Shown here: in pieces, positions 15,528 through 22,835 of the stretch | How positions within the stretch are numbered: position 1 is the first letter of the stretch | Layout of the letters: each line of letters starts with the position of its first letter | Source of the DNA: Oscillospiraceae bacterium | GTDB taxonomy: Bacteria > Bacillota > Clostridia > Oscillospirales > Ruminococcaceae | DNA length: 64,000 bases | Assembly: GCA_015067175.1 (NCBI GenBank) | Contig: SVMX01000001.1 | Coordinates: 248,001-312,000, forward strand | Direction: 5' to 3' | Notes under the pieces: generated by a model | What the model was told of the DNA's origin: nothing | What the model saw: only the letters and a program-made list of their open reading frames with translations | The model's database searches: none | Translations under genes and position numbers: made by a program

Positions 15528-15556
15528 TTGCGTTAGTCGCTCGGTTATGCTATAAT
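15528..15556 (+). promoter_or_regulatory. promoter of the NRPS-like operon
   Basis: TTGCGT (15528-15533), 17-bp spacer, TATAAT (15551-15556), about 45 bases before the PPTase ATG. Together with the hyd leader on the other strand it fills the 343-base gap 15260-15602. Confidence 0.7.
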
Positions 15557-15602
15557 ATAATTTGGTGGTTAGTAAAATATAGTATATATCATTGGAAGGC
15601 TT

Positions 15603-16232
15603 ATGCAGATAAGATTAGTTCACACAAATGATGTGCCGCTCAGCAGGCTTGAGCCGCTCACCGCAATGCTCACGCCAAAGCACCGCGAACGGCTTGCTTC
15701 GCTCGGCGACTCTGCCGCAGCAGAGCTTATCATGTCTGAGCTTTTGGTGCGCAACGAGGCGTCAATGGCGCTTTCAATTCCGTTTTGGAAGCTGAACTTC
15801 GGATACTCCGAATACGGCAAACCTTATATCGAGGGCTTTGAAAGCTACAGCTTTTCCGTGTCACATTCGGGCGGGTACGTTGCGTTTATTGACAGCACCG
15901 AGGATATCGGGATAGATATCCAGCTTATACAAGGAAAAAACAAATACGCCGCGCGCTTTTTCACTGAAAACGAGCAGCTCTACGCCGCGCAGAGCGATAA
16001 CGCCTTTTTCGAAGTGTGGACGCGCAAGGAAGCCTACATCAAAATGCTTGGTATCGGGCTTTCCCATGGGCTGAGAAGCTTTGACGTACTGGACGACAGC
16101 CTAGGCTGCTGCTTCACCACAAAAAAACTACAACATCACATAATTTCGGTATGCAGCGAACAAGAAGCTGCGCTTACGACCAAAACGACAAACGCTGAAA
16201 CGCTGCTCAACGCAGCTTTTGCAATAACATAA
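15603..16232 (+). CDS. Sfp-type 4'-phosphopantetheinyl transferase
   Basis: Transfers the phosphopantetheine arm of CoA to the serine of a carrier protein. In 209 aa the conserved Mg-binding Asp105 lies in DIGIDIQ, and W139xxKEA144 (WTRKEAYIK) supplies the catalytic Lys142/Glu143. FSVSHSGGYV precedes these, as in the family. The length fits the Sfp/Gsp class. It is the first gene of a five-gene operon whose fourth gene encodes a carrier protein, so that protein is the obvious substrate. AAGG lies 6-9 nt before the ATG. Confidence 0.93.
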   Translation: MQIRLVHTNDVPLSRLEPLTAMLTPKHRERLASLGDSAAAELIMSELLVRNEASMALSIPFWKLNFGYSEYGKPYIEGFESYSFSVSHSGGYVAFIDSTEDIGIDIQLIQGKNKYAARFFTENEQLYAAQSDNAFFEVWTRKEAYIKMLGIGLSHGLRSFDVLDDSLGCCFTTKKLQHHIISVCSEQEAALTTKTTNAETLLNAAFAIT

Positions 16233-16245
16233 CAGGAGGACTTAT

Positions 16246-17235
16246 ATGAGCGCAATCGTCATCGCATCGGCAATAGTCGGAGGACTTGCCGTTGCAGGAA
16301 CAGTCGGCTCTTTTGTAGGAGCAAACACACTGTACAAAAAGATAATCCCGCGTCAGGACCAGTGCAGAGTTGACGTCAGCGAAATGGCTGACGCAAAGAA
16401 GTGGGAACGCTACATCGAATTTATTCATGAAAACAAGGATTGGCTTTTCAAGCGCGAGATGGAGCATATCACTCTCAAAGCGCGTGACGGCATAACGCTC
16501 CACGGCGATTATATCAAGACAGACGGCGATACTGATACCATTGCGGTATGCGTTCACGGCTACACAACTACGGGCATGGACGCCTGCTCGTCTATCGCAA
16601 CATATTTCCTCAAAAACGGCTATGACTGCCTTATCATGGACAACCGCGCTCACGGCAAGAGCGAGGGAGACTATGTCGGCTTCGGAATACTCGACAGATA
16701 CGACCTAATCAAGTGGCTCGAATACTTAAACGACCGTTTTGAGGGCAAAAAAAATATCATTCTCTACGGCGTTTCAATGGGAGGTTCAACAGTGCTGATG
16801 ACCGCAGGCCTTGAAAACTTCCCGAAGAATGTAAAGGCGATAATCGCAGAGTGTGCGTTCACAACTCCTTATGATGTGTTTGCGCATATCCTCAAAAGAG
16901 ATTATCACATGGCAAAGTTCCCCATCATGAACATCAACGACAGGATGTGCAGAAAAACAGCAGGCTACGGCTTCAAGGACTGCTCAACGCTTGACGCAGT
17001 TAAGTCCACAAGCTGCCCGATACTGTTCGTTCACGGCAGCGAGGACGATTTCGTCCCCACTCACATGAGCCACGAGAACTATGAAGCCTGCACAGCTCCA
17101 AAGGAGCTGCTTATCGTTGAAAATGCGGGGCACGCAGCAAGCTACTACGAAAGCCCCGAATTATATCAAAAAACTATTGAGGAATTTCTCGGAAAACACG
17201 CACCCGAGATCTTACCGGAAAGGACAAGCAAATGA
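16246..17235 (+). CDS. membrane-anchored alpha/beta hydrolase
   Basis: 329 aa with one N-terminal membrane span (residues 4-26, Ala/Gly/Val rich), then an alpha/beta-hydrolase fold. The nucleophile is Ser177 in GVSMGGS, the acid is probably Asp267 or Asp268 in HGSEDDFVP, and the base is His296 in ENAGHAA. The oxyanion segment is VHGYTTTG. It resembles BAAT/DUF1749-like serine hydrolases. In this operon it could act as an off-loading thioesterase or acyl transferase at the membrane (inference). A GGAGG precedes the ATG, and its stop overlaps the next start by 4 nt. Confidence 0.85.
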   Translation: MSAIVIASAIVGGLAVAGTVGSFVGANTLYKKIIPRQDQCRVDVSEMADAKKWERYIEFIHENKDWLFKREMEHITLKARDGITLHGDYIKTDGDTDTIAVCVHGYTTTGMDACSSIATYFLKNGYDCLIMDNRAHGKSEGDYVGFGILDRYDLIKWLEYLNDRFEGKKNIILYGVSMGGSTVLMTAGLENFPKNVKAIIAECAFTTPYDVFAHILKRDYHMAKFPIMNINDRMCRKTAGYGFKDCSTLDAVKSTSCPILFVHGSEDDFVPTHMSHENYEACTAPKELLIVENAGHAASYYESPELYQKTIEEFLGKHAPEILPERTSK

Positions 17236-18644
17236 AAGAGTTTACCATCAACGGCTCTGTAATGAAATGCTATCCCCTTAATTCCGCGCAAAGGCTGCAC
17301 AACTACACCATAAGATACTGTCCCCATCAGGTGCTTAACATCGGCACAGGACTGTATATTCAGGTAGGTGTTGATTTCGATGTGCTGAAGCAGTCCATCT
17401 ATGAGGCGTGCAACCGCCTTGACTCCATGCGTATCCGCTTCATCAAGGACGAGGACGATACAGTCTACCAGTACATCGTTCCGTTTGAGGAAAGAGAGAT
17501 ACCGCTCGTTGACTTCTCCTACTGGAAGGAGGAGGACGCTCACCACGAGATGGAAAAGTGGACAGCTGTGCCGTTTGAGAGATACAATTCTCCTATGAAT
17601 CAGATCGTAATGGTAAAGCTTCCTAACGGCTATAACGGCGTTTATCTTAAAGTAGACCACATGACTATGGACTCAAGCTCCATCATCGCATTCGACCGCG
17701 ACGTGCTTGAGATATACTGTGCAAAGATGTACGGCAGAGAAATGCCGAAGCCTATGATGTCCTACATAAAGCAGCTTGAAAAGGACCTCGCATATGAAGG
17801 CTCCGCCGCTCAGAAAAAGGACGAGGAGTTCTGGCTAAACGAGATCGCATCCAGCGAGCCGATGTACACAGACTTCACAGGCATGGGCAGACTGCTGACG
17901 CAGCGCAGAGAAAACAACAATCCCGACCAGCGCAGCGCACTGGTAGTTTCTAAATCCGTGGCTGCGGGCATCTCCGTTTACCATCTTGAAAAAGAGCCGT
18001 CAGACCGTCTTATGCAGTTCTGCATAGATAATCAGATACCGATGGTTTGTCTGCTTCTGATGGGTCTCAGAACAGTGCTTTCAAAGTTCAACGACAACGA
18101 AAAGGACGTTTCGGTAAAGAGCGTTGTCGCTCGCCGCGGAACGCTTCTCGAAAAGCGCTCGGGTGGTTCCAGAATGCACTTCTTCCCGCTTCGTACCATA
18201 ATCGAGCCCGAAACCACATTTATCGACGCGATAAAGATAATCCAGAACGAGCAGAACAAGCTGTTCCGTCACGCAAACTACGACCCCATCGCTCACACGA
18301 TGAACCGCTCCAAGCACTGGAATCTGCAGCCCGGCGCAAGCTACGAGAGCATGGCGCTGACCTACCAGCCGCTCACTCTGAAGCAGCAGCAGACCTCCGA
18401 GGAGGATATGCCCGATATCCCCTACAAGAGTATGTGGTACACAAACGGAGTTGCGGGTCAGCCGCTCTACCTCACCGTTATGCACCGTGTTGAGGACAAT
18501 GGACTTAACTTCAATTTCGAGTACAGATACGACGTTGTATCCGAGCACGAAATGGAATATCTTTACTACTACCTGTGCCGCGTTCTTTTCAGAGGTATCG
18601 AGGATAAGGACAGAACAGTCGGCGAAATTCTTGAAATGATTTGA
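17232..18644 (+). CDS. stand-alone condensation-domain protein (NRPS C-domain/acyltransferase fold)
   Basis: 470 aa, the length of a single condensation domain, with YPLNSAQRLHNY at the start (compare the C1 motif with its conserved SxAQ). The active-site motif is degenerate: D142-H143-M-T-M-D147 in place of HHxxxDG, so the catalytic second His and the structural Asp remain. FPLRT (about residue 320) matches the late R-p-l/F-N-t region. Members join a carrier-bound acyl group to an amine or alcohol acceptor. It lies between the hydrolase (4-nt overlap) and the carrier protein (18-nt gap), and presumably uses that carrier protein. The acceptor is unknown. Confidence 0.85.
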   Translation: MKEFTINGSVMKCYPLNSAQRLHNYTIRYCPHQVLNIGTGLYIQVGVDFDVLKQSIYEACNRLDSMRIRFIKDEDDTVYQYIVPFEEREIPLVDFSYWKEEDAHHEMEKWTAVPFERYNSPMNQIVMVKLPNGYNGVYLKVDHMTMDSSSIIAFDRDVLEIYCAKMYGREMPKPMMSYIKQLEKDLAYEGSAAQKKDEEFWLNEIASSEPMYTDFTGMGRLLTQRRENNNPDQRSALVVSKSVAAGISVYHLEKEPSDRLMQFCIDNQIPMVCLLLMGLRTVLSKFNDNEKDVSVKSVVARRGTLLEKRSGGSRMHFFPLRTIIEPETTFIDAIKIIQNEQNKLFRHANYDPIAHTMNRSKHWNLQPGASYESMALTYQPLTLKQQQTSEEDMPDIPYKSMWYTNGVAGQPLYLTVMHRVEDNGLNFNFEYRYDVVSEHEMEYLYYYLCRVLFRGIEDKDRTVGEILEMI

Positions 18645-18662
18645 TATACGGAGGAAAAAACG

Positions 18663-18890
18663 ATGTTTGACCAGCTTAAAGAACTTATTTGCAACTATGT
18701 TGAGGTAGACGCAGACTCTATCACCGAGGATTCCAGATTTATCGAGGATCTCGGCTTCAATTCCTATGATTTCATGAGCCTTCTTGGTGAGCTTGAGGAG
18801 ATCCTTGAGGTTCAGGTATCCGAGGAGGAGGTCATCAAGCTCTCCACAGTCGGCGACGCTGTAAAGTACCTTGAATCCCTGAAAAAGTAA
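18663..18890 (+). CDS. acyl/peptidyl carrier protein
   Basis: A 75-aa four-helix carrier protein. The phosphopantetheine attachment site is Ser34 in DLGFNSYDFMSL. The acidic helix II (LLGELEEILEV) and VIKLSTVGDAVKYLE complete the fold. It is a specialised carrier, since the genome should encode a separate AcpP for fatty acid synthesis (family knowledge, not seen here). GGAGG lies 9-13 nt before the ATG. The PPTase at 15603 is the likely activating enzyme and the adenylating protein at 18902 the likely loader. Confidence 0.95.
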   Translation: MFDQLKELICNYVEVDADSITEDSRFIEDLGFNSYDFMSLLGELEEILEVQVSEEEVIKLSTVGDAVKYLESLKK

Positions 18891-18901
18891 GGAGAACTCA
18901 C

Positions 18902-20446
18902 ATGAACAAAGAGCTTCTTAAAACATTACAGGACCTTGTTCGCCTTGCCGCTGAGGAATACGGCGATAAGGCATACATAAAGGAAAAAGCAGGCACCGCA
19001 ATAATCGAAAAGTCTTTCAATGACCTTTACGACAACAGCAGACGCATCGCTTCCTGCCTTACAGAAAAGCTTGGCGGTGAAAAAGTCCACGCTGCTGTTA
19101 TAGGTCCTACAAGCTACGCGTATCTTGCCGCTTATTTCGGAACAGTTATCAACGGCAACGTTACAGTTCCGCTCGACGCACAGCTCGCTTGCGACGACAT
19201 CTGCGAGCTTATGAACAGAGCCGATGTTAATGTATTCTTCTTCGACAAGCGCTACGAGCCTATGATAGCCGCTGTCAAGGAGAACTGCCCGCAGATAAAG
19301 GCATATATTTCTCTCCAGCCTGCCGATTGCGCTGATATCTCCATTAGCGAGATAGTTGAGAAATATCAGCCCACAGAGCTTAAAAACATAGCGGAAAGCG
19401 ATCTTGCTTCCATCGTCTACACTTCGGGTACTACAGGCAAGGCAAAGGGCGTTATGCTCGCACACAGCAACCTTATCGACAACGTTACCTGTCAGGACAA
19501 TGAAAGCTCGCCTGAGGACGTGCTTCTTACTGTGCTTCCCGTTCACCACGTTTACTGCTTCACCTGCGATATACTTCTCTCGCTGAGATACGGCGCTACT
19601 GTTTGCGTAAACGACTCTATGATGAGAATAGCACAGAATTTAAAGCTGTTCCAGCCGACAATTATCCTGCTTGTTCCCATGATAGCTCAGACGATATACA
19701 AGCAGATACAGACCGTTTCAAGCAGCAAGGGACTTCCCCCCGCGGCAGTTGCACAGGCTGTTTTCGGCGGCAGGCTTAAAGGTATCTTCAGCGGCGGCGC
19801 TTACCTCAGCCCCGAGCTTATCAACAATTATCTTGAGCTTGGTATCCCGATCGCACAGGGCTACGGCATGACCGAATGCTCGCCGAGAATATCCACCGCA
19901 AGCTTTGATGAAATAAGCACAGCAGGCGATGTAGGTAAGATCGTAAACCGCTGCGAGGTTAAGATAGTTGACGGCGAGATCGTTGTAAGCAGCCCCTCCG
20001 TAATGCAGGGCTACTACAAGTACCCTGAGGCTACAGCAGAAGCTCTTGACTCCGATGGCTGGCTTCACACAGGCGACCTCGGCTATGTAGGCGACAACAG
20101 ACGTCTGTTCATCACAGGAAGAAAGAAGAACCTCATCATTCTCAGCAACGGCGAAAATGTTTCTCCCGAGGAGCTTGAAAACAAGTTCGCAGGAAAGAGC
20201 ATCGTTGCAGAGGTGCTGGTCTACGCCGAAGAGGGCTTTATCACAGCCGAAGTATTCCCGAACAGCGAGGAATGTCCCGACGCAGATGATGCTGCCGCAA
20301 AGCTTAACGAGATGATAAAGGAGATAAACCTCACTCTCCCCTCCTCCAAAACGATACGCAGACTGCGCGTTCGCGACAGAGAGTTCGACAAGACCACAAC
20401 CAGAAAGATACTCCGCAAGCAGTCCTATCAGGGCGACATCAAGTAA
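18902..20446 (+). CDS. AMP-forming acyl/aminoacyl-carrier-protein ligase (stand-alone adenylation protein)
   Basis: 514-aa ANL-superfamily enzyme. Motifs: A3 IVYTSGTTGKAKGV (about 180), A5 GYGMTECSP, A7 GWLHTGDLG, hinge A8 FITGRKKNLIILSNGENVSPEE and the C-terminal Lys in TRKILRK. The region after A3 reads LPVHHVYCFTCDILLSL rather than the FDxS of amino-acid A domains, so a fatty or aryl acid is a more likely substrate (inference). It follows the carrier gene by 11 nt and a terminator closes the operon at 20466. The short C-terminal domain is present. No carrier or reductase domain is fused. Confidence 0.88.
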   Translation: MNKELLKTLQDLVRLAAEEYGDKAYIKEKAGTAIIEKSFNDLYDNSRRIASCLTEKLGGEKVHAAVIGPTSYAYLAAYFGTVINGNVTVPLDAQLACDDICELMNRADVNVFFFDKRYEPMIAAVKENCPQIKAYISLQPADCADISISEIVEKYQPTELKNIAESDLASIVYTSGTTGKAKGVMLAHSNLIDNVTCQDNESSPEDVLLTVLPVHHVYCFTCDILLSLRYGATVCVNDSMMRIAQNLKLFQPTIILLVPMIAQTIYKQIQTVSSSKGLPPAAVAQAVFGGRLKGIFSGGAYLSPELINNYLELGIPIAQGYGMTECSPRISTASFDEISTAGDVGKIVNRCEVKIVDGEIVVSSPSVMQGYYKYPEATAEALDSDGWLHTGDLGYVGDNRRLFITGRKKNLIILSNGENVSPEELENKFAGKSIVAEVLVYAEEGFITAEVFPNSEECPDADDAAAKLNEMIKEINLTLPSSKTIRRLRVRDREFDKTTTRKILRKQSYQGDIK

Positions 20447-20465
20447 GCCCATCACACAAAAAACT

Positions 20466-20496
20466 ATCCGCCCTGTTACCTGCAGGGCGGATTTTT
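20466..20496 (+). terminator. terminator of the NRPS-like operon
   Basis: ATCCGCCCTG/CAGGGCGGAT stem with a 7-nt loop followed by a T-run. Confidence 0.9.
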
Positions 20497-20549: not shown

Positions 20550-22835
20550 TCATATTGTATTTGTACGCTGCGCCTGCTTTTGAGGCTCGGTCGGATTCTT
20601 ATACTCCTTAAAGCAATCAAGCAGATGGGATTCACCATTAGCGTCTATCAGGCTTTTAGGTAACGGCAGGTCACCGCATACAAGCTTCTTAGCGTATTCT
20701 ATAACATCGACCTGTTCTTTTGTACCCTTGATTGTGTCCATTTCGTTAAAAATATTAACGAGCGCATCCCTAAATTCTTTTTTAACAATGCCCGCGCCAT
20801 TTGGCTCAATATGTTCATCTCTTACACTCTTGCTACAATAATCCTTCAATACGAGCGCATTCAACAGATTGTTAACGGTAGACGGAGTAGAAAATACCGT
20901 ACTGAGCGCCGGACTTGCATAATAAGTCGCAATTTTGCTTATTATAGATTTATGCTGACTTTCGTAGCCATAATTGCCGGCTCTGAGAGCGTTGGCGTCT
21001 TTTCTCGTATCAAGTATGCCGCGCGACATAGACTGATAAAGATCGCAGCTTGCAGTTGTAAATAACGAATGCGGAATAACTGCTTTCGCAATAGACATAT
21101 TGTCATCATAATCTACATGCGGCAGATTTCTCTCATGCTCCTGCAGTGCATCGGTAAGCTGAGCATAAGTTTCAGAGATGATCTGAAGCTTCTCTTCTAC
21201 TGCTTCTTCGTATCTCTGTCTTGCAAGCTCATCAGTTTTCAAGGCATTTTTGACAGCCTTGGAGCTATAATTAGGATACATAGCCCTTACTACATCTTCA
21301 TGAGTTGGAACAGTGAACTTATCCACGAACTCTCGGCCGTACTCCTTCATAAGTCTCTTATCTTCTTCACTCGGAGCAACAAGCTGTCCTAAATTCATTC
21401 CCTTTGACAGCATATAGATTGCAGCAAGACTGCCGCGCGAAGTTGCTCTGCCCATAGTTTTGACGATATCTTCCTGACGCTGAAACTCGTTCTCCCCATT
21501 CTTGAAGAACTCATTTTTATAATATTTCGTGTGGTCAGAAAAGTATCTGCCGGGATCATCAAAATTCGACAGAAAGCAATAATTTTCAATGTTTTCATAC
21601 ATTTGATCGCATTGTTCTTTTTCAGTTATGACAGATGCCATACTGTCTGCATAAGAATGGGTCGTATAATCAAAATGTTTTATCGATTCCACAATATCAT
21701 CGTCAAGAAGCTGATTAAACTGTACCGCTTCCTCAAACTTTTTGGTTTTAGATTTCAGCTCAATGCCGAAGAATCTCAAAATCGCACGCCATATGCTGAA
21801 CTTCTCCTCTGCAACAAGGCTCGGAATAACATGCATAGGTTTAAGCTCTCCGTCTTCTCTGGTCATATCGCGCACTGCAAACTGATGTCCGCCGTCGAGA
21901 ACATCTTTCATAAACATACAGCATGAATAGTCTTTATCACCGAAATTGTATGCTAAAGACGCAGGCACACCGTCAACATATACACAATCAAGGAATTGCA
22001 TATTGTCATTGTATTCATTGCGTCCGTAAAAGCTCTTCAGCATATTCTGAACAGCATCTTTTGCCCACCTTACATCCTCCTCGGAAACGGGGCGTTGTCC
22101 AAGACGTTCAGCATAATTTTCCTTAGTAAGTCCATCGGAAGTATGCATATTGACTCTGAGAGTTGCCTCTCTGTAAGCGCGTTTGCCCGAAAACTCCTTG
22201 TACTTTTTGCCGTCGGCATAGCTTTCATAGCCCTTGCCCATAGCCTCCGCAGCTTTCTCAAGGTACTTATTGCTTTCCTCTTTGTAATCCTCCCAATCGT
22301 CGAGCCAAAAATCATCATATTCATCGGCTGTCACGAAACCGCTGTAAGATGTCTCCATATCATGATAGCTGTACCTCTTACCATTGATTACAGCATCAAG
22401 CGCAGACAAATAAACACCAAGCTCTCTGTTCAGCTCCGATGACACCTCAGATGTCTTTTCAGCAGAATTGTAAAGCTCATTTCTTACGCTCTGAGGAACA
22501 TTAAATTTCACACCATCGATCTCCATATCGATCATGTTGTACGCCATGATCTCCGCAACATAGGTGCCGTTAGCCGTTGTAAGCTCCTGGAGGCATTTTT
22601 CCGACAGATCTGTTAAGGTCTTGGCAACATGACGATCATGATCATATTCAAGATTATTATAATTATCAATAAATGCCTGCAGCTGATTTATCTTTCTTTC
22701 ATGCTCTACTTTTTTAACAGGCGCAGGAAGCAGATGCTGAACCAGATCCTCAATACCGGGATCAGCCTTCTGAATGAGATCTGCAGCAATTTTCAGCATT
22801 TCTTCTTTGCTTTGTACATTTATAACCTTTGGCAT
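20550..22835 (-). CDS. large cytoplasmic protein of unknown function (761 aa)
   Basis: Not recognised. It has no signal peptide and no clear membrane span. It is rich in charged and aromatic residues with long helical stretches. An amphipathic segment FSIWRAILRFFGIELKSKTK near residue 355 resembles NIFKRALNSVFGAFQKEID in the unknown protein at 51183, although the similarity is weak and short. The C-terminus is polar (KNPTEPQKQAQRTN). AAAGGAG precedes the ATG. It is a single-gene unit with an ECF-sigma-like promoter at 22919-22894, a type not seen on the metabolic genes here. Helical content and size would fit a scaffold or effector-like protein, but nothing in the sequence fixes a role. Confidence 0.75.
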   Translation of the reverse strand: MPKVINVQSKEEMLKIAADLIQKADPGIEDLVQHLLPAPVKKVEHERKINQLQAFIDNYNNLEYDHDRHVAKTLTDLSEKCLQELTTANGTYVAEIMAYNMIDMEIDGVKFNVPQSVRNELYNSAEKTSEVSSELNRELGVYLSALDAVINGKRYSYHDMETSYSGFVTADEYDDFWLDDWEDYKEESNKYLEKAAEAMGKGYESYADGKKYKEFSGKRAYREATLRVNMHTSDGLTKENYAERLGQRPVSEEDVRWAKDAVQNMLKSFYGRNEYNDNMQFLDCVYVDGVPASLAYNFGDKDYSCCMFMKDVLDGGHQFAVRDMTREDGELKPMHVIPSLVAEEKFSIWRAILRFFGIELKSKTKKFEEAVQFNQLLDDDIVESIKHFDYTTHSYADSMASVITEKEQCDQMYENIENYCFLSNFDDPGRYFSDHTKYYKNEFFKNGENEFQRQEDIVKTMGRATSRGSLAAIYMLSKGMNLGQLVAPSEEDKRLMKEYGREFVDKFTVPTHEDVVRAMYPNYSSKAVKNALKTDELARQRYEEAVEEKLQIISETYAQLTDALQEHERNLPHVDYDDNMSIAKAVIPHSLFTTASCDLYQSMSRGILDTRKDANALRAGNYGYESQHKSIISKIATYYASPALSTVFSTPSTVNNLLNALVLKDYCSKSVRDEHIEPNGAGIVKKEFRDALVNIFNEMDTIKGTKEQVDVIEYAKKLVCGDLPLPKSLIDANGESHLLDCFKEYKNPTEPQKQAQRTNTI

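What the first reader, a model, noticed from the sequence alone, without database searches (positions are those of the whole stretch)
15528..20496. Compact five-gene stand-alone NRPS-like operon of unknown product
PPTase, membrane-anchored hydrolase, free condensation protein, free carrier protein and free acyl-adenylating enzyme are packed with gaps of -4 to 18 bases between one promoter and one terminator. Seen directly: all active-site motifs, with the condensation motif degenerate (DHxxxD). Known: these families load an acid on a carrier and join it to an amine or alcohol. Inference: a small lipo-amide or ester is made, possibly released by the hydrolase at the membrane. No modular NRPS or PKS is present, so standard cluster finders may miss it.
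Basis: partly seen in the sequence, partly recalled or inferred. Interest (0 to 1): 0.8.

Follow-up and report, generated by a model that had tools for sequence, protein, structure and literature searches.

The report
Gut-bacterial fatty-acid-amide gene cluster
This five-gene operon most likely joins a fatty acid to a small amine to make a lipid signal-like molecule, as already described for other gut Clostridia, with an extra membrane-anchored lipase-like enzyme that accompanies many clusters of this type and whose job is not yet known.

Summary
Five co-directional genes (15603-20446) encode a PPTase, an N-terminally anchored alpha/beta hydrolase, and free condensation, carrier and acyl-adenylating proteins. 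The condensation protein matches PDB 12KH = OaaC of Coprococcus eutactus (E 1.9e-112; 40% identity), the amide-forming enzyme of a gut-Clostridia fatty acid amide (FAA) cluster (PMC13142362). The operon is best read as a new member of that class. Carrier and adenylating genes follow C in 90 of 102 related loci with enough sequence, the hydrolase precedes it in 72 of 105. The close form of the hydrolase occurred only in genomes with this C: 26 of 26 in the family draw. The described oaa cluster has three proteins, none a hydrolase. An invariant Ser-Asp-His triad and an esterase/monoglyceride-lipase-like fold suggest that it supplies the fatty acid; editing or product turnover remain open. The PPTase is an occasional partner. 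The carrier is not the sole AcpP. Acyl chain and amine are unknown. Whether the hydrolase link is already published could not be checked: the founding paper is not held.

The parts
15528..15556 (+). possible promoter, TTGCGT-17-TATAAT with extended -10 TG
   Evidence: read by eye; not listed by the scan (first hexamer 3 of 6)
15603..16232 (+). Sfp-type 4'-phosphopantetheinyl transferase, 209 aa
   Evidence: ACPS 54 bits; AASDHPPT_N 29.5; one of 4 ACPS-family matches in the genome
16246..17235 (+). alpha/beta hydrolase with N-terminal hydrophobic helix, 329 aa; Ser177-Asp267-His296
   Evidence: only close copy found in the genome
17232..18644 (+). free-standing condensation protein, 470 aa, DHMTMDS motif; relative of OaaC
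18663..18890 (+). free-standing acyl carrier protein, 75 aa
18902..20446 (+). acyl-adenylating enzyme, 514 aa; fatty-acid activation and carrier loading inferred
20466..20492 (+). intrinsic terminator

Best explanation
A fatty acid amide operon. The PPTase primes the carrier (inferred from its family). The adenylating enzyme activates a free fatty acid with ATP and loads it on the carrier (inferred from family, synteny and the OaaA/OaaACP/OaaC system). The free condensation protein transfers the acyl group from the carrier to a small diffusible amine; the amide leaves with that step, so no thioesterase is needed (shown for OaaC by others, inferred here). The anchored hydrolase most likely frees the fatty acid from lipid esters at the cytoplasmic face of the membrane (inference; about 40% for this role). 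The confidence below is for the FAA reading of the core, not for the hydrolase role.
Confidence: 0.8

Rival explanations
1. Same FAA synthesis, but the hydrolase edits: it clears wrong or stalled acyl groups from the carrier (type II thioesterase-like), or it cleaves the finished amide to recycle or tune it.
Against: The N-terminal helix (mean hydropathy of 1.6 or more over 19 residues in 30 of 46) is not usual for editing thioesterases (recalled); lipases and esterases make up most of the 50 rows shown.
Confidence: 0.35
2. The product is not a simple amine amide but an N-acyl amino acid or an ester, made by the same free C protein.
For: Window C is 40% identical to OaaC and sits in another subclade; the acceptor pocket was not compared.
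Against: FAA condensation domains are reported to exclude amino acids (citing Chang et al.); motif DHxxxDS is kept.
Confidence: 0.12
3. An ordinary fatty acid activation and recycling set, with the condensation protein doing something else.
For: The adenylating enzyme resembles CoA ligases.
Against: C-ACP-A synteny across families; a separate carrier beside acetyl-CoA carboxylase genes; patchy presence, 15 of 43 congeners.
Confidence: 0.04

Closest known systems
oaa cluster of Coprococcus eutactus (OaaA, OaaACP, OaaC; oleoyl aminovaleric acid), PMC13142362; OaaC = PDB 12KH
   Same: free A, ACP and C proteins; C homologous end to end (E 1.9e-112; 40% identity); DHxxxDS motif; the stretch around OaaC's extra helix (about 214-224) aligned without gap
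   Different: window C in another subclade; the window operon adds a hydrolase and a PPTase, while the paper describes three proteins and its main text does not contain the word hydrolase
other FAA clusters of gut Clostridia, Chang et al. 2021 Nat Microbiol (title and citing text seen; the paper is not held; its abstract recalled)
   Same: class of cluster; gut Clostridia as hosts
   Different: gene content could not be compared; the hydrolase may or may not be in their clusters
Pf2001 esterase (5G59) and monoglyceride lipases (Rv0183, human MGL), for the hydrolase
   Different: 16-24% identity in the alignments; activity here untested

Membership tests
FAA gene clusters of gut Clostridia | free-standing adenylation, carrier and condensation proteins encoded together | tested here: met
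   C-ACP-A in 90 of 102 related loci with at least 2200 bases downstream
FAA gene clusters of gut Clostridia | condensation protein homologous to OaaC rather than to modular C domains | tested here: met
   E 1.9e-112 against 12KH, next 5.6e-7; class search: 20 genomes at 237 bits or more, the other matches at 103 or less and mostly in frames over 1000 aa
FAA gene clusters of gut Clostridia | one FAA clade apart from CStarter and other C classes | tested here: inconclusive
   one clade against 8 modular C domains not rejected, p-AU 0.713; modular rows fell in two places in the free trees; no CStarter or VibH rows included
FAA gene clusters of gut Clostridia | (D/H)HxxxDS active-site motif | tested here: met
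   DHMTMDS in the window; over 107 FAA-like rows His2 and Asp6 in 107, DHxxxDS in 59, [DH]HxxxD[SAG] in 92
FAA gene clusters of gut Clostridia | no acceptor carrier and no modular NRPS | tested here: met
   one carrier in the operon; one PF00668 match in the genome as assembled
FAA gene clusters of gut Clostridia | makes an amide from acyl-ACP and a free amine | not testable with these tools
   needs an enzyme assay
FAA gene clusters of gut Clostridia | C protein is a homodimer opened by holo- or acyl-ACP (shown for OaaC) | not tested
   no complex prediction was run
monoacylglycerol lipase-like alpha/beta hydrolases | alpha/beta hydrolase fold with Ser-Asp-His triad | tested here: met
   S177, D267, H296 invariant in 46 of 46; model pLDDT 92.4; fold matches
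monoacylglycerol lipase-like alpha/beta hydrolases | hydrolysis of acylglycerol | not testable with these tools
   needs an assay

The most novel reading that the evidence does not exclude
A widespread branch of the FAA pathway carries its own membrane-anchored lipase that cuts fatty acids out of membrane or dietary lipids and hands them to the adenylating enzyme, so that the operon turns lipid plus free amine directly into a lipid amide; the cassette hydrolase-C-ACP-A sits at differing genomic sites in gut Clostridia of several families, with PPTases joined at different positions.
Probability: 0.35. Interest if true: 0.55.

Novelty: new member of a known kind. Interest (0 to 1): 0.35.

Why it matters
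FAA clusters make lipid amides that act on human receptors (PMC13142362, citing Chang et al. 2021). This member extends the class to a hydrolase-bearing branch found in 39 named relatives, all MAGs, 10 of them with titles that name deer, goat, sheep or rabbit. If the hydrolase supplies the acyl donor, it helps decide which fatty acids end up in the signal, and gives a clear, testable fourth component for a pathway reconstituted with three proteins plus a PPTase.

Tried and rejected
Sole AcpP: rejected; 3 PP-binding matches in the genome, one beside accA-, accD- and accC-like genes. Hydrolase as a chance neighbour: rejected by co-occurrence and gene overlap. PPTase as an obligate part: rejected; a same-strand PPTase near C in 6 of 93 loci with at least 2300 bases upstream, plus two congeners, L221 and L231, with it right after A. 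Conserved genomic site: not supported; none of the window's flanking genes (ThiH/HydG-like, HydE-like, TM1266-like, 761-aa ORF, Mfd) was found in 117 of 119 loci (L125 has a ThiH/HydG-like piece at its far end, L106 a 43% identical Mfd), nor in the 14 congeneric loci; many of these contigs are short. Rfam found two tRNAs in the window and nothing else at the gathering score. A search for OaaC's own genome gave no copy above 56% identity in 299 genomes. The fold search of the adenylating enzyme did not tell CoA ligase from carrier ligase. Families absent from the fold lists are not thereby excluded. antiSMASH was not run.

Rows dropped: one search kept loci with C proteins of 430-560 aa without stops and 9 of the 10 modular loci (L033 left out); one search left out L028, L106, L107, L109, L129 and L217 as long branches; one search used 119 loci and dropped 3 as duplicates. 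L219 repeats L054.

Full report
What is there. The window holds five + strand genes between 15603 and 20446 with gaps of 13, -4, 18 and 11 bases. Pfam gives ACPS, alpha/beta hydrolase, Condensation, PP-binding and AMP-binding, each over its cut-off. A terminator closes the unit. The promoter is plausible by eye but was not in the scan list. Upstream, on the other strand, lie radical-SAM genes and a TM1266-like regulator; downstream, also on the other strand, an ORF without Pfam match and Mfd (the names ThiH/HydG and HydE are recalled). So the five genes look like one transcription unit of their own; no transcript was seen.

What it is. The condensation protein matches one solved structure far above all others: 12KH, E 1.9e-112, over nearly its whole length; the next is 5.6e-7; identity is 40% over 463 columns. 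The preprint PMC13142362 (seen: outline and abstract, introduction, sections 6 and 9, discussion, methods part 1 of 2, figure legends, and found passages) states that 12KH is OaaC of Coprococcus eutactus, which forms a fatty acid amide from an acyl-ACP and a free amine. It says that FAA systems consist of free A, ACP and C proteins, that the C proteins often carry DHxxxDS, and that the class was found by Chang et al. 2021 in gut Clostridia. The Chang paper is not held; what I know of it beyond these citations is recalled. The window has DHMTMDS where OaaC has DHRLMDS.

How common. In 391 genomes drawn from the class, 52 match at E 1e-10: 20 (the window's own included) at 237 bits or more, the rest at 103 bits or less and mostly inside frames of over 1000 aa. 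In the family draw 45 of 297 match, 37 of them by a 160-bit line that I drew. In the genus it is 15 of 43, or 7 of 27 among the more complete genomes; four of the 15 are partial. So presence is patchy, though incomplete genomes will hide some. The named-genome scan, whose patterns reach close relatives only, gave 39 loci, all MAGs, nearly all titled Oscillospiraceae, Ruminococcus or Clostridia; 10 titles name deer, goat, sheep or rabbit ('Lapin'). A family labelled f31, searched with OaaC, has 42 of 299; that it is Lachnospiraceae is my inference.

Gene order. I compared 119 loci (L054-L132; L179-L218), of which 116 are distinct. They were chosen for a C match, so the counts are given C. With at least 2200 bases held downstream, ACP and A follow C in 90 of 102. 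With at least 1300 upstream, the hydrolase precedes C within 300 bases in 72 of 105. With both, the four-gene order holds in 61 of 93. By identity of C to the window's: about 65% or more, 31 of 32 have the hydrolase (the one without, L092, has only a piece of C); 40-64%, 38 of 52; below 40%, 3 of 21. A same-strand PPTase lies near in 6 of 93: upstream in L054, L056, L086 and, further off, L211; between ACP and A in L113; after ACP in L217. In the congeners L221 and L231 it comes right after A. So C-ACP-A is the core, the hydrolase a frequent and tightly linked partner, the PPTase an occasional one.

The hydrolase is a specific partner. It is the only close copy found in its own genome; the next match has 30.5 bits. 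In the family draw 26 genomes have a hydrolase of 337 bits or more; all 26 are among the 37 with C, and each lies on the C contig by the coordinates. The next, 279 bits, is not on the C contig, and more distant ones occur widely without C. Fisher p is 5e-29, which ignores kinship between genomes. In the genus, 11 close ones, all with C; a fragment in G989, with C; a distant one (181 bits) in G1005, without C. Hydrolase and C overlap by four bases in the window and in 16 of 116 other loci. In L104 and L105, OaaC-like loci without it, a different hydrolase of family Hydrolase_4 follows A directly. Against this, of 40 loci without an adjacent hydrolase (7 with too little upstream sequence), only 4 have any hydrolase that my two searches could see within 5 kb.

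Tree. With 116 rows the window sits in a supported set of 35 rows, the other 34 all with the hydrolase; OaaC sits in a set of 22 rows: 16 without it, 3 with more distant hydrolases, 2 not tellable. The modular outgroup fell in two places, which I take as long-branch trouble. After six long rows were left out it still did, but holding all 102 FAA-like rows together gave a higher likelihood than the free search and was not rejected (p-AU 0.713). CStarter domains were not included, so the placement reported in the preprint was not retested.

Sites. The window's flanking genes were not found around C in 117 of 119 loci nor in 14 congeneric loci, even in L054, whose C is 91% identical. Between window and L054 the hydrolase is 68% and the PPTase 41% identical, so the parts have had unequal constraint or history. 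Movement as a unit is a possible reading, not shown.

Verdict. A new member of the known FAA class with a clear accessory that the papers I could read do not describe. Searches for print on such clusters gave the preprint as the only listed paper on this enzyme class that I opened in sections; of three other listed papers I saw passages. The preprint's main text does not contain the word hydrolase. This does not show that the link is unpublished.

Noticed in passing
L135:7100-12263 (own genome, contig C6): Another carrier protein lies beside a ketoacyl-synthase-like frame, a short-chain reductase, a PPTase and a flavodoxin-like protein: a possible small type II PKS/FAS-like cluster.
   Followed up: partly
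window 20550-22835, - strand: 761-aa ORF without any Pfam match at E 0.001.
   Followed up: no
L104:4354-5304 and L105:10302-11255: A Hydrolase_4 protein follows A directly in two OaaC-like loci; its best BLAST match to the window's hydrolase is E 0.004 over 37 residues.
   Followed up: partly
L101, L103, L190, L191: Free FAA-like C proteins without an adjacent carrier or adenylating gene.
   Followed up: no
window 15603-20446 against L054:6349-11228: Unequal identity of the five proteins: PPTase 41, hydrolase 68, C 91, carrier 75, A 80%.
   Followed up: no
L072: Record titled Alistipes senegalensis, but its C protein nests among Ruminococcus MAG rows: perhaps a misnamed bin.
   Followed up: no
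L108 (G416): Only about residues 2-176 of C are matched, in two frames, next to hydrolase and A, and no carrier was found: the cluster looks broken there.
   Followed up: no
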